From positions 2,170,001 through 2,234,000 of the forward strand of contig NZ_CP099997.1 of the NCBI RefSeq assembly GCF_024138145.1: a DNA stretch of 64,000 bases, given 5' to 3'. Below are positions 7,220 through 11,098 of this stretch, one piece after another. Positions within the stretch are counted from its first letter, which is position 1. The number at the start of each line of letters is the position of its first letter. The notes below the pieces were generated by a model that saw only the letters and a program-made list of their open reading frames with translations, did no database searches and had not been told where the DNA came from. Source of the stretch: Natronosalvus halobius (GTDB lineage Archaea > Halobacteriota > Halobacteria > Halobacteriales > Natrialbaceae). The position numbers were made by a program, and so were the translations under genes.

Positions 7220-7291
7220 CGGTTTTCCGATTTTCCGTTTTTCCAGTATTTCGGTGGACAATTGATATTCCTGGACAGCCAACCACACGAT

Positions 7292-8341
7292 ATGCGGGTG
7301 TACTGCCAGGGCTGTGCTGGCTGTTGCATCGACTGGCGACCGTTGCTCGAGGGCGATCAGCGAGACGCCATCGAGCACGAGCGACGCGGACTCGGTGTCG
7401 CTTCGGGTGAGGGGGGTGGGGAAGAACCGGGGACGGGAGGAGAGACTGCAACAGGAACAGAGACGGAGACGGAGACGGAGACGGAGACGAGAACGAATGG
7501 CACCCCAATTCGCCGTCGCAACGCAATCGACGACGTCTACAACCTCGTGCCGCTCACCCGCGACGAGGTCCGGGCGTTCCTGGAGGCCGGATTCGGCGAC
7601 GTACTGATCCCACGACTGTGGGAGGCCGACGCGGTCGACGACTCCGTCTCGATCGACGGCTACGACGTCGCCGCCATCGCCGGGCGCCCGGCCTTCTTCG
7701 TCGGGCTCAGAAAACCCCCGAAGCCGGTCGCTCCCTTCGGTCGCGAAGACGCCGCCTGGTTGCCGACCTGTACGTTTCTCGACCCCGAAACCCTCCAGTG
7801 TCGCATCCACGGCGACGACCTGTACCCGGGCGAGTGCGCGGAGTACCCCGCCCACAACGTCGCCCTGGAGCAACAAACCGAGTGCGAACGCGTCGAGGAT
7901 GCCGTCGGCGGCGAGCGGATACGGTTCGACGACTCGAACGACGGCGAAGGGACGAAACGGGACGAGGAGGGCGTCACCGTCGACGTCGAAGCCACCGACG
8001 GCCTGCTCCTCGGTCCCCAGGCGATCGGCCAGAAGCTGTTCGTCCACCCCGACCCCAACGCCCTCAACGGACGGCTCGAGCGCCTCGTGTCGGGCGAGCT
8101 CACGACCGAGGATCGGGCGGCCTTCGTCGCCGTCGCCGCCGCCTCCGCACCCGGGACGCTCGCGATCTCCGATCACCACTACGATCAGGCGTACGAGCGT
8201 GTCCTGGAGGCCGACTCCTGGGCGGGCGCGGCGATCCGCGAGTGGGAACAGCGCGCGTCGGAGACACCGGCCGACCCGTCACAGGGAGCGGCCGTCGAGG
8301 TCGCTCGTGGTGCTCCCGAAACGCCGGGCTGGCCCGATTGA
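7292..8341 (+). CDS. YkgJ-family cysteine cluster protein
   Basis: A 349-residue protein with the YkgJ/CxxCxxCC arrangement: YCQGCAGCC at the N-terminus, a further Cys in PTCTFLD, and CRIHGDDLYPGECAEYP near residue 180. These cysteines probably bind a metal or iron-sulphur cluster. Family function is not established. Residues about 50-70 are a low-complexity Thr-Glu run encoded by a near-perfect hexanucleotide repeat (7457-7489) that interrupts the conserved region. It precedes a cluster of haloarchaeal DUF genes without obvious functional linkage. Confidence 0.82.
   Translation: MRVYCQGCAGCCIDWRPLLEGDQRDAIEHERRGLGVASGEGGGEEPGTGGETATGTETETETETETRTNGTPIRRRNAIDDVYNLVPLTRDEVRAFLEAGFGDVLIPRLWEADAVDDSVSIDGYDVAAIAGRPAFFVGLRKPPKPVAPFGREDAAWLPTCTFLDPETLQCRIHGDDLYPGECAEYPAHNVALEQQTECERVEDAVGGERIRFDDSNDGEGTKRDEEGVTVDVEATDGLLLGPQAIGQKLFVHPDPNALNGRLERLVSGELTTEDRAAFVAVAAASAPGTLAISDHHYDQAYERVLEADSWAGAAIREWEQRASETPADPSQGAAVEVARGAPETPGWPD
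7457..7489. repeat. Hexanucleotide GAGACG microsatellite inside a gene
   Basis: About five GAGACG-type hexamers in a row encode Glu-Thr repeats in the YkgJ-family protein. The period is a multiple of three, so changes in copy number would keep the frame. The same Thr-Glu hexamer vocabulary recurs at the 3' end of the lipoprotein gene near 12170-12220. Confidence 0.8.
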
Positions 8342-8657: not shown

Positions 8658-9698
8658 ATGCCGGTTCGGTCCGTACGATCGCTCGTGGCACGGCCGCTTC
8701 GCTTTCGATACTCGCCCCAGCGCTGGTCCGACCAGCGCGTCAGACAGGAGATTTTCAACCCGCTAAACGGTAACATCGGGGCTCGAGACGCCGGTCCGTG
8801 GTACGCCATCGGCGATCAGTGGGACACCCATCGATTCGAGATGGCCAACGGCGACATTGCCCTCTTCGCTCGGTCAGACGACGACGCCTACTGGATGGGT
8901 AACACCGAAACGCCCTCGTCGCTCTGGCGAACGGACAAGTACGCCTGGGAGGACGTCCCCTACCAGGTCGCCCGGTGGGCCCAGCGGGAACTTCTCGCGA
9001 CGCTCCACGAGCGCGAGTCCTGGCTGGCCGACTACCCGTACCTCTCGTGGTTCTTCCTCCCGGTGTTCATGTCCAAAGACGGCCGCAAGTCGACGCGAGC
9101 GTTCTTCCGCGAACACGCCGCGGGCTTCCCCGACGCGGGCCGGCGAGAAGCGACACGCTTCATCGAGGAAATCCTCGAGACCGGCGCGCTCGACCCCTAT
9201 CGTGACGTGATGGCAGGCAAACTCGGCACGAGCCCGCACGTCGACCGGGTTCGCATGAGCGCAGCGATGGCGGAGTTCATCGCAGCGAAGATTCTCGTCG
9301 ACGCCGGCTACGAGATCACGCCTGAGATCGAGGTGACGACGGGCCACTCGCTCGACTATCGAGCCGAGGACGCCGCGACCGGCACGAACGTGCTGGTCGA
9401 GGTCACCCGCCCCCAGCCGCCTGCCAACCGCGCCGCCGCGGGCCCCGTCGCCGCCGTCAGAGACACCGCCGAGACGAAGACCAGCGGCCAGCTGGCAAAT
9501 CACGGCGGCGGCGCGACCCTGTTCGTCGACTGCTCGAGTTTCCCCGACGACGCCTGGGCGGCCGTTCGGGGCGAACAACCGGACGTTCGCCACCGGCCCG
9601 CGGTGGTCTACCGCGCTCGGCCCGACGGGCGCGTCGAGGGGTATCAGAAGGGGTCGGTACCGCTCGACCTCGGGGACGCGATTTCGTTTGTCGACTGA
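8658..9698 (+). CDS. DUF5784-like haloarchaeal protein, possible nuclease fold
   Basis: A 346-residue protein conserved in haloarchaea (I believe DUF5784). Residues 8-110 contain conserved FRYSPQRWSDQRV and WYAIGDQWDTHRFEM. The C-terminal part (about 205-300) runs through a helix AMAEFIAAKILVDAGYEI, then LDYRAED and VLVEVTRP, which is the spacing and hydrophobic pattern of a PD-(D/E)xK-type restriction-endonuclease-like core (Asp, then Glu-x-Thr in place of Glu-x-Lys). That assignment is my inference. The ATG at 8658 follows a short divergent promoter region. Confidence 0.78.
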   Translation: MPVRSVRSLVARPLRFRYSPQRWSDQRVRQEIFNPLNGNIGARDAGPWYAIGDQWDTHRFEMANGDIALFARSDDDAYWMGNTETPSSLWRTDKYAWEDVPYQVARWAQRELLATLHERESWLADYPYLSWFFLPVFMSKDGRKSTRAFFREHAAGFPDAGRREATRFIEEILETGALDPYRDVMAGKLGTSPHVDRVRMSAAMAEFIAAKILVDAGYEITPEIEVTTGHSLDYRAEDAATGTNVLVEVTRPQPPANRAAAGPVAAVRDTAETKTSGQLANHGGGATLFVDCSSFPDDAWAAVRGEQPDVRHRPAVVYRARPDGRVEGYQKGSVPLDLGDAISFVD

Positions 9699-9715
9699 GC
9701 GGGTCGCGTGACCAG

Positions 9716-10399
9716 CTACTGTGCGCTCACGCTGACCCAGCTGGGCCCTGGTGTGATAGGGAGATCGTATACCCGAATTCTGACCCCACACCCGTCGTTC
9801 TTGTAGCTCAACTCCGCCGCACTGATCGCGAGAAAGGCAGCCAGAGCGGCGAGAACTCCGGCCGCTACGGTACCTGCTCCAGTGGCTGAGGCAATCCAAC
9901 TGGCGAGCCCCGAAACGGCAGCCCCCTGGCTGGCTCGCGTTGCGACGTATTCAGTATCTTCGTCATTGAGGTAGAAATAATAGGTCGCGTATGGCCGTGT
10001 CAGCCCTGGCAATTTGTAGTCGAAGGCAGTCGTTCCACAATAAGTACCTACCCCTCCGTCGGTCAAGGAAACGTACTCCTCGCGGGCCAAGTCGGTTGGG
10101 TTCGCAAAGACGTCACCCTTATGTCTCTCGAAGGTGAGATATCCCTCCTGTTTCTCGTCGTTGAGTCCTTCAAGTATCCGGTCGAGATTATAGGTGGCAG
10201 TTTGTGCACTCGAAATGCCCTCACCCGACTCATCTAATGTCAGTTCTCCGTTTTCGAGTACGATTGCAGTTTGACCGCCGTTGGATCGCCCATCGGCGCT
10301 ACCTACCCCCGTCGCCCCGAACATCGTGAAACCAGCTACTGCGATGGTGCTACTAATAAATCGGCGTCGTCCTGTCCGTCGTTTAATTTCCTTTACCAT
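9716..10399 (-). CDS. Tat-exported protein with hydrophobic C-terminal hairpin
   Basis: A 227-residue protein with a clear Tat motif (GRRRFISSTIAVAGFTM, residues 10-26), a polar middle region with YVSLTDGG and a conserved-looking Cys in GTYCGTTAFDY, and an Ala/Gly-rich hydrophobic stretch from about residue 160 to 197. It ends in a short polar tail with a second Cys (NDGCGVRIRVYDLP). An exported protein whose C-terminal part could insert into membranes recalls bacteriocin-like precursors, but I recognise no named family. A TATA-like element at 10419-10431 is centred about 26 bases before the ATG, predicting a leaderless transcript. Codon use and local AT content differ from the neighbours. 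Confidence 0.72.
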   Translation of the reverse strand: MVKEIKRRTGRRRFISSTIAVAGFTMFGATGVGSADGRSNGGQTAIVLENGELTLDESGEGISSAQTATYNLDRILEGLNDEKQEGYLTFERHKGDVFANPTDLAREEYVSLTDGGVGTYCGTTAFDYKLPGLTRPYATYYFYLNDEDTEYVATRASQGAAVSGLASWIASATGAGTVAAGVLAALAAFLAISAAELSYKNDGCGVRIRVYDLPITPGPSWVSVSAQ

Positions 10400-10418
10400 C
10401 GTGTAATTAGTTGTACTT

Positions 10419-10431
10419 ATATTTAATATAT
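10419..10431 (-). promoter_or_regulatory. TATA-box promoter of the exported protein
   Basis: On the minus strand this reads as a run of TATA and TTAAATATA centred about 26 bases upstream of the ATG at 10399. That is the distance from an archaeal TATA box to the transcription start, so the message probably begins at or next to the start codon. The surrounding 100 bases are strongly AT-rich. Confidence 0.6.
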
Positions 10432-10565
10432 ATTCCTATTTCATATTAGTAAATATTTTTGTGTAGATTTATAATACGTTAGTTAGAAAGGGTGTGGTTC
10501 TGAGGAGGTCCTCAGCTAAAAGGTGACGAGACTTTGTTGACGCTAAAACTATCCGAAAAGGTGAG

Positions 10566-10742
10566 TTAAGATATGATGGATAGTCCTCGACTTGCAAAAT
10601 AGAATGTCACAGTTCCAAGGACGACAGTTGCGACTAGGGCCCACAACTGTCCTTCGGTCGAATTTGCATTCAGAACGGTGAAAAGTGAGGCCACAGCGGC
10701 GATAGCAGTCAAGCCGGCTATTATCAGTGTTTTTTCGACCAT
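10566..10742 (-). CDS. 58-residue two-helix membrane protein
   Basis: A short gene below the usual length cut-off, found by reading the minus strand from the ATG at 10742 to TAA at 10566. The 58 residues start MVEKTLIIAGLTAIAAV and form two hydrophobic helices (about 5-24 and 32-50) joined by a short polar turn (NANSTEGQ) and ending SRGLSIIS. A TATA-like element at 10766-10773 is centred about 27 bases before the ATG, as for a leaderless archaeal gene. It lies directly upstream of, and in the same direction as, the exported hydrophobic protein at 9716-10399. A small membrane protein in this position could be an immunity or partner protein; this is inference. Confidence 0.6.
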   Translation of the reverse strand: MVEKTLIIAGLTAIAAVASLFTVLNANSTEGQLWALVATVVLGTVTFYFASRGLSIIS

Positions 10743-10765
10743 GGTGATTACTACTAAATCCTACA

Positions 10766-10773
10766 TTATAATA
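10766..10773 (-). promoter_or_regulatory. TATA box of the 58-residue membrane protein
   Basis: The minus strand reads TATTATAA here, centred about 27 bases before the ATG at 10742. The position predicts a transcription start at the initiation codon, which supports the short open reading frame as a real gene. Confidence 0.55.
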
Positions 10774-10810
10774 GTGACGAGATGGTGGAATTTATAGTCC
10801 TTATCCGGAA

Positions 10811-11098
10811 TTAGAACGACATCGGCACGGGCGCGTACGGACTACCGAGCGGCGTCGGATCCCGGTCGGAGTAACCAACGCGACCGACCGCCTTGTCGCT
10901 CACCGCGGAGTAGACCGCCAGTTGGGCGTCGTCGGCGGACTCGAACGTCTCGCCCTCGAGGCGGCCGAGTACGTCACCGAGTTGCTCGGACCCGTTCGGG
11001 AGTTCGAGGTCCCGGTCGCCGTAGGCCTCGATCAGTTCCTCCGTCGTCGCGGGGTACTCGTGGGCGTCGATGAACTCGCTGGTTCGGTTACGAAACAT
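10811..11098 (-). CDS. DUF5789-like haloarchaeal protein
   Basis: A 95-residue protein containing HEYPATTEELIEAYGD, LPNGSEQLGDVLGRL and a GYSDRDPTPLG tail. This is the layout of a small haloarchaeal family I believe is DUF5789; its function is unknown. I chose the ATG at 11098 (MFRNRTSE) over the longer frame from 11197 because the family begins here. An AT-rich TATA-like element near 11121-11130 is about 27 bases upstream, predicting a leaderless transcript. It closes the AT-rich islet, although its own codon use is normal for the genome. Confidence 0.75.
   Translation of the reverse strand: MFRNRTSEFIDAHEYPATTEELIEAYGDRDLELPNGSEQLGDVLGRLEGETFESADDAQLAVYSAVSDKAVGRVGYSDRDPTPLGSPYAPVPMSF

What the first reader, a model, noticed from the sequence alone, without database searches (positions are those of the whole stretch)
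9716..10742. AT-rich islet: exported protein with membrane-active tail plus hidden small membrane protein
The 9.7-11.3 kb region is visibly richer in A and T than the rest. It encodes a Tat-exported protein with an Ala/Gly-rich hydrophobic hairpin and a short Cys-containing tail and, upstream on the same strand, a 58-residue two-helix membrane protein missed by length cut-offs. Both have TATA boxes at leaderless distance. A secreted hydrophobic toxin with a small immunity membrane protein is a typical arrangement for bacteriocins and would be a new type of halocin; the alternative is a pair of structural surface proteins.
Basis: partly seen in the sequence, partly recalled or inferred. Interest (0 to 1): 0.62.

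Follow-up and report, generated by a model that had tools for sequence, protein, structure and literature searches.

The report
Haloarchaeal secreted toxin-immunity gene pair
A two-gene cassette inserted in a salt-loving archaeon appears to encode a secreted, membrane-attacking protein and a tiny membrane protein that shields its maker; it belongs to an undescribed, widely shuffled family whose sequence patterns look like bacteriocin-style warfare, though no killing activity has been tested.

Summary
Window 9,700-10,810 (50% GC, window 65.5%) replaces ~113-117 bp found in the two closest same-genus genomes and holds exactly two genes: P0001 (227 aa, Tat signal, C-terminal hydrophobic helices, two cysteines) and P0002 (58 aa, two TM helices). 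The AT-richness beyond 10.81 kb is not part of it. P0001 belongs to a divergent family that no Pfam, NCBIfam, PHROG, PDB or fold search identifies, found in 33 of 391 haloarchaeal genomes. Its members nearly always sit beside a small membrane protein from one of ~19 mutually unrelated partner groups. Partner type follows the toxin tree with the minimum possible number of changes, partner and toxin identities rise together, and in ten loci the exported gene is broken while the partner stays intact. Weaknesses: P0002 has no detectable homologue, so its role rests on position, topology and its clade; no killing assay exists; the pore mechanism is inferred. Weak hints to geobacillin-26 (E 0.055) and a circular bacteriocin (E 0.06) are not significant. 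New family, known kind.

The parts
9700..10810 (.). Inserted two-gene cassette (islet); about 115 bp of unrelated intergenic DNA stands here in the two closest relatives
   Evidence: GC 0.498 versus 0.655
9716..10399 (-). P0001, candidate exported toxin precursor, 227 aa
   Evidence: family found
10292..10399 (-). Twin-arginine signal (RRRF) of P0001, residues 1-36; disordered in the model
10049..10291 (-). N-terminal (probable pro-) domain, residues about 37-117: beta hairpin, helix 66-84 with the invariant N80, beta hairpin, helix
   Evidence: absent in the short homologue L102
9719..10048 (-). C-terminal effector domain, residues about 118-227, from the CGxN motif to the terminal xxQ
   Evidence: profile A3 from this domain finds the family
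9800..9964 (-). Ala/Gly-rich hydrophobic helices, residues 146-200
10037..10039 (-). Cys121 (CGxN motif), predicted to pair with Cys204
   Evidence: co-occurrence
9788..9790 (-). Cys204 (NDGCGV motif)
   Evidence: co-occurrence
10421..10432 (-). TATA-like promoter of P0001 (TATATATTAAAT)
   Evidence: consensus match only
10566..10742 (-). P0002, candidate immunity protein, 58 aa, two TM helices
   Evidence: no homologue; all clade-mates of P0001 have a 63-69 aa two-TM partner
10766..10771 (-). TATA-like box of P0002 (TTATAA)
   Evidence: consensus match only

Best explanation
The islet is a mobile toxin-immunity cassette. P0001 is a Tat-exported protoxin. After export its N-terminal domain is probably removed in the variable linker before the CGxN motif, leaving a domain of about 110 aa in which hydrophobic helices sit between beta strands and are pinned by a Cys121-Cys204 bond. 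This domain inserts into the membrane of sensitive, probably related, haloarchaea and damages it. P0002 sits in the producer's own membrane and blocks insertion or pore assembly. Shown here: family, linkage, co-evolution, partner retention, insertion at an otherwise empty site. Inferred: export, processing, disulphide, membrane damage, protection by P0002.
For: Two-gene cassette present or absent at a conserved site. Sporadic, fast-diverging family: 33/391 genomes, 23/86 genera. Small multi-TM neighbour: 12/22 members versus 3/87 control genes under a strict rule; 18/22 versus 35/131 within 600 bp, p=1.3e-6. 19 partner clusters at E<1e-3, eight with more than one member; partner and toxin identities rise together. 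Partner class on the toxin tree: 8 changes, the least possible, against 22.2 shuffled. Linkage survives changed orientation within one class (L013 downstream same strand, L009 downstream opposite, L016 upstream divergent). Toxin broken but partner intact in ten loci: L090, L091, L093, L094, L099, L101, L104, L105, L143, L144. Near-identical cassette in two genera: L010/L011 toxin 99.6%, partner 100%. One partner class carries a PH-like domain, as do transport proteins of a leaderless bacteriocin (PMC13262744). Cys121/Cys204 occur together. P0001's clade (L017, L018, L102) all have two-TM partners of 63-69 aa.
Against: No activity data. P0002 has no significant homologue, not even with the partner of P0001's nearest relative. 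L022 is an intact toxin with no linked partner by these criteria, and the partners given to L027 and L028 lie about 1 kb away. One relaxed control finds a two-TM ORF near 27% of ordinary genes, so single loci prove little. No fold match; model confidence is moderate (pLDDT 71).
Confidence: 0.72

Rival explanations
1. The family is a secreted toxin with linked immunity in general, but in this window P0002 is not the immunity protein: it is a regulator, an export helper or a chance neighbour, and immunity lies elsewhere or is lost.
For: P0002 has no homologue and no detectable kinship with partners of the nearest toxins; upstream placement with its own promoter differs from the commonest downstream placement.
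Against: The cassette contains only these two genes; the three clade-mates have two-TM partners of similar size, one of them (L102) also upstream on the same strand; no shuffle yields such an ORF.
Confidence: 0.13
2. P0001 and its partner form a structural or adhesive surface complex, the membrane protein anchoring or assembling the exported one.
For: An exported hydrophobic protein beside a membrane protein would fit an anchor.
Against: Unrelated partner types for one exported family, intact partners beside broken exported genes, absence from nearly all close relatives and a near-identical cassette in two genera are not expected of a surface structure.
Confidence: 0.08
3. A signalling pair: exported protein or peptide plus membrane receptor.
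For: Ligand-receptor pairs also co-diverge, as these pairs do.
Against: 58-69 aa two-TM proteins have little room for a sensor output, and no linked kinase or regulator was seen to be conserved in the loci read.
Confidence: 0.05
4. P0001 is a halocin precursor whose active part is elsewhere (for example the N-terminal domain), released by proteases as for HmHapP.
For: HmHapP releases an active N-terminal fragment after halolysin cleavage (PMC12893001).
Against: Conserved motifs concentrate in the C-terminal domain and the short homologue L102 keeps only that domain.
Confidence: 0.1

Closest known systems
Halocins with known genes (H4, C8, S8, H6/H7)
   Same: Proteins exported by haloarchaea, some released from larger precursors (PMC12893001; PMC6759562).
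   Different: P0001 has only two cysteines, whereas halocin C8 is cysteine-rich (own knowledge), and a separate partner gene, whereas one gene gives both production and immunity for C8 (Sun et al. 2005, title cited in PMC6759562). No direct comparison with the H4 or C8 sequences could be made; pHM300 was not held under the accessions tried.
Geobacillin 26 / alicyclobacillin 24 (class III bacteriocins)
   Same: Size (238-245 aa), export signal, predicted C-terminal hydrophobic helix, mixed alpha/beta body, narrow range and membrane effect (PMC13176240).
   Different: They use Sec signals; the NCBIfam model scores 13.3 bits against a cut-off of 40 for P0001, matches 1 of 22 members, and reached its cut-off in none of 61 genomes.
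HmHapP (HFX_0892) protease-precursor system
   Same: A haloarchaeal exported precursor activated by extracellular serine protease (PMC12893001).
   Different: Activity lies in its N-terminus; no immunity partner was described in the passages read; sequence not compared.
Leaderless bacteriocins with PH-domain proteins (enterocin DD14)
   Same: PH-domain proteins in the bacteriocin locus (DdE/DdF, PMC13262744); one partner class here is multi-TM with a PH-like domain.
   Different: The toxin here is a larger Tat precursor, not a leaderless peptide; DdE/DdF act in transport; the window's own partner is not of the PH class.
Small TM immunity proteins of class II bacteriocins
   Same: A short multi-TM protein beside the toxin gene.
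   Different: No sequence relationship detected in Pfam or NCBIfam.

Membership tests
Bacteriocin-type toxin with dedicated immunity gene (as a kind) | Linked immunity gene that stays with its cognate toxin | tested here: met
   for the family; for P0002 itself only position and topology
Bacteriocin-type toxin with dedicated immunity gene (as a kind) | Immunity genes retained where the toxin is lost | tested here: met
   Ten loci; counter-cases L174 (fragments of both) and L172 (broken partner, no toxin seen)
Bacteriocin-type toxin with dedicated immunity gene (as a kind) | Inhibits other strains; producer protected | not testable with these tools
   Needs a plate assay
Geobacillin-26 family (NF035925) | Score over the curated cut-off (40 bits) | tested here: not met
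   13.3 bits, E 0.055; 1 of 22 members; none over cut-off in 61 genomes
Geobacillin-26 family (NF035925) | Sec signal peptide | tested here: not met
   Twin-arginine motif RRRF in P0001 and RR in the full-length members, by inspection
Geobacillin-26 family (NF035925) | C-terminal TM helix on a mixed alpha/beta body | tested here: met
   resemblance only, no structural comparison with Geo26 was possible
Halocin C8 | Cysteine-rich mature C-terminal peptide | tested here: not met
   Two cysteines in P0001, none in L012, L017, L025; the C8 cysteine content is own knowledge
Halocin C8 | Immunity encoded within the same ORF | not testable with these tools
   Separate partner gene in the family; whether the N-terminal domain also protects is unknown
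Halocin H4 | Sequence homology to HalH4 | not tested
   pHM300 not held under the accessions tried
Circular bacteriocins (plantacyclin B21AG) | Significant profile match | tested here: not met
   E 0.06 over profile positions 72-122

The most novel reading that the evidence does not exclude
A previously undescribed archaeal arms-race system: one rapidly diverging family of Tat-exported membrane toxins, spread horizontally among haloarchaea as two-gene cassettes, that has paired with many unrelated membrane immunity proteins (two-TM, three/four-TM and six-TM with a PH-like domain), leaving orphan immunity genes where toxins decayed.
Probability: 0.6. Interest if true: 0.75.

Novelty: new variant of a known kind. 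Interest (0 to 1): 0.62.

Why it matters
Only a handful of halocin genes are known, and their immunity is mostly obscure. This family would give dozens of ready toxin-immunity pairs across haloarchaea, testable with two genes each in lab strains, and a clear case of unrelated membrane proteins taking the same protective role in archaea. It would also help explain sporadic AT-rich islets in these genomes.

Tried and rejected
Pfam, NCBIfam and PHROGs scans of P0001, P0002 and 22 members: only sub-threshold hits. The scattered single-member hits in NCBIfam and Pfam (for example FosX E 2.8e-4, DUF6861 E 0.002) are not shared by the family and were treated as composition or chance. PDB sequence search: plantacyclin E 0.06 and influenza HA2 E 0.13, not significant. 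Foldseek against PDB and BFVD for P0001: nothing. Viral contigs: no relatives. Plasmids: none for P0001; partial hits in two Natrinema plasmids for other members. Many hits of the full-length profile matched only the Tat signal, so the search was repeated with the C-terminal domain alone. No tRNA in the window and no Rfam RNA near the islet. G274 (L095) was dropped as a probable false hit because the only two-TM ORF there overlaps the match.

Full report
OBSERVATION. P0001 (9716-10399, minus) and P0002 (10566-10742, minus) are present as described. The islet 9,700-10,810 has 49.8% GC against 65.5% for the window, and its genes lack the high third-position GC of the neighbours: P0001 0.57, P0002 0.44, neighbours 0.81-0.83. 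TATA-like boxes lie 22-33 and 24-29 bases upstream of the two start codons. No dinucleotide shuffle of the intergenic stretch (0 of 2000) gave an ORF of at least 55 aa with two TM segments, although 20% gave some ORF of that length.

EMPTY SITE. The left neighbour (8658-9698) is present in all eight genomes of the genus. In the two closest (97% and 96% protein identity) it is followed after about 115 bp by the same right-hand gene and then the PHP-type gene; neither P0001 nor P0002 is there. The window therefore carries a cassette of about 1.1 kb with exactly these two genes in place of an ordinary spacer. No tRNA lies in the window.

FAMILY. P0001 found 6 of 100 related genomes. A profile of the C-terminal domain of 22 members (A3) found 33 of 391 haloarchaeal genomes, 23 of 86 genera, about 41 places. 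Named holders include Natronorubrum halalkaliphilum, Natronobiforma cellulositropha, Natrarchaeobius chitinivorans and Natrinema versiforme. Shared features are a Tat signal, an N-terminal region with an invariant Asn (N80), a variable linker, a CGxN motif, hydrophobic helices, an N-x-G-C-G-V motif and a terminal Gln. AlphaFold2 gave pLDDT 71 and pTM 0.65: two beta hairpins and two helices N-terminally, then strands 125-129 and 138-144, helices 146-157, 162-173, 180-192 and 194-200, and strands 206-212 and 221-226. Nothing similar is in the PDB or BFVD. All 18 members with a Cys in the second motif also have one in the first; six lack both, and three of those have His at both places. A disulphide is the simplest reading, and P0001 has no other cysteine.

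PARTNERS. Nearly every member sits next to a short multi-TM gene. Strict rule (400 bp, two TM, not overlapped by a longer ORF): 12 of 22 members against 3 of 87 control genes. Relaxed rule to 600 bp: 18 of 22 against 35 of 131, p=1.3e-6. The control rate depends strongly on the rule, and related loci are not independent, so the p value is indicative. By BLAST the 37 partner assignments fall into 19 unrelated clusters, eight with more than one member: two-TM of 60-69 aa, three/four-TM of 118-165 aa, and six-TM of about 300 aa. Two of the single-member assignments (L027, L028) lie about 1 kb away and are weak. Partner identity follows toxin identity in most clusters (for example 67/76%, 44/40%, 97/97%). 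On the toxin tree the partner classes need 8 changes, the minimum, against 22.2 for shuffled labels. Within class B the partner lies downstream on the same strand, downstream on the opposite strand or upstream divergent, yet stays linked. The 300-aa class ends in six strands and a helix and matches PH-like (FERM F3, NF1 PH) folds with probability 1.00, best E 1.7e-3; bPH_7 is a sub-threshold Pfam hit. This class has many more distant relatives away from any toxin, so it was probably recruited from a wider family.

DECAY. In L090, L091, L093 (same in L103), L094, L099, L101, L104 and L105 the exported gene is frameshifted, truncated or internally deleted while the partner ORF is whole. In L143 and L144 only a short C-terminal piece of the toxin (ending VSSQYCGC and VSSQHCDC) remains beside an intact PH-class partner. 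L171 has a partner and no toxin seen. Counter-cases are L174 (fragments of both) and L172 (broken partner), and L022 (intact toxin, no linked partner found). Retention of orphan immunity genes is a known feature of bacteriocin systems (literature hits). Transfer is shown by L010 and L011, different genera, with 99.6% and 100% identity.

THE WINDOW'S PAIR. P0002 has no significant relative in 391 genomes, and no detectable similarity to the partner of L017, P0001's nearest relative. Its assignment rests on being the only other gene of the cassette, on its topology, and on the fact that the clade WIN, L017, L018, L102 (92-93% bootstrap at two nodes, not starred) has two-TM partners of 58-69 aa throughout, with L102 also upstream on the same strand.

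MECHANISM. Export by Tat is inferred from the motif. L102 (140 aa) joins a Tat signal directly to the C-terminal domain, which suggests that the N-terminal domain is a dispensable pro-region and that residues 118-227 are the effector; one example could also be a deletion. Halolysin-type processing is known for haloarchaeal precursors (PMC12893001). Membrane insertion is inferred from the hydrophobic helices and the membrane nature of all partners; protection by the partner from linkage and retention.

COMPARISON. The family works most like class III bacteriocins of the geobacillin-26 type (PMC13176240), but membership was tested and not met. It is not cysteine-rich like halocin C8. Paper searches showed no description of this family, but the library is open-access only.

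VERDICT. Without an assay it remains a well-supported prediction.

Noticed in passing
L017, L027, L102 (motif positions of Cys121 and Cys204): Where the two conserved cysteines are missing, three members have His at both positions, so a metal-binding role instead of a disulphide is possible.
   Followed up: partly
L102 3049-3471: A 140-aa homologue with the Tat signal fused directly to the C-terminal domain, without the N-terminal domain.
   Followed up: partly
L010 / L011: Almost identical toxin and partner genes (99.6% and 100%) in two different genera: recent transfer.
   Followed up: yes
L098 3470-4117 (same locus as L022): An intact toxin-family gene without a recognisable partner in the several kb read.
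   Followed up: partly
L147-L166: A wider haloarchaeal family of multi-TM proteins related to the PH-class partners, not next to any toxin found here.
   Followed up: partly
window 10811-11098: Small conserved gene next to the islet, 99% identical in the two closest relatives; probably an ordinary haloarchaeal DUF gene (name from memory, not tested).
   Followed up: no
window 7357-7526: Tract encoding runs of alternating Ser/Val/Pro in several frames (GAGACGGAG-like repeats) inside a longer ORF at 7262-8341; looks like a low-complexity acidic stretch.
   Followed up: no
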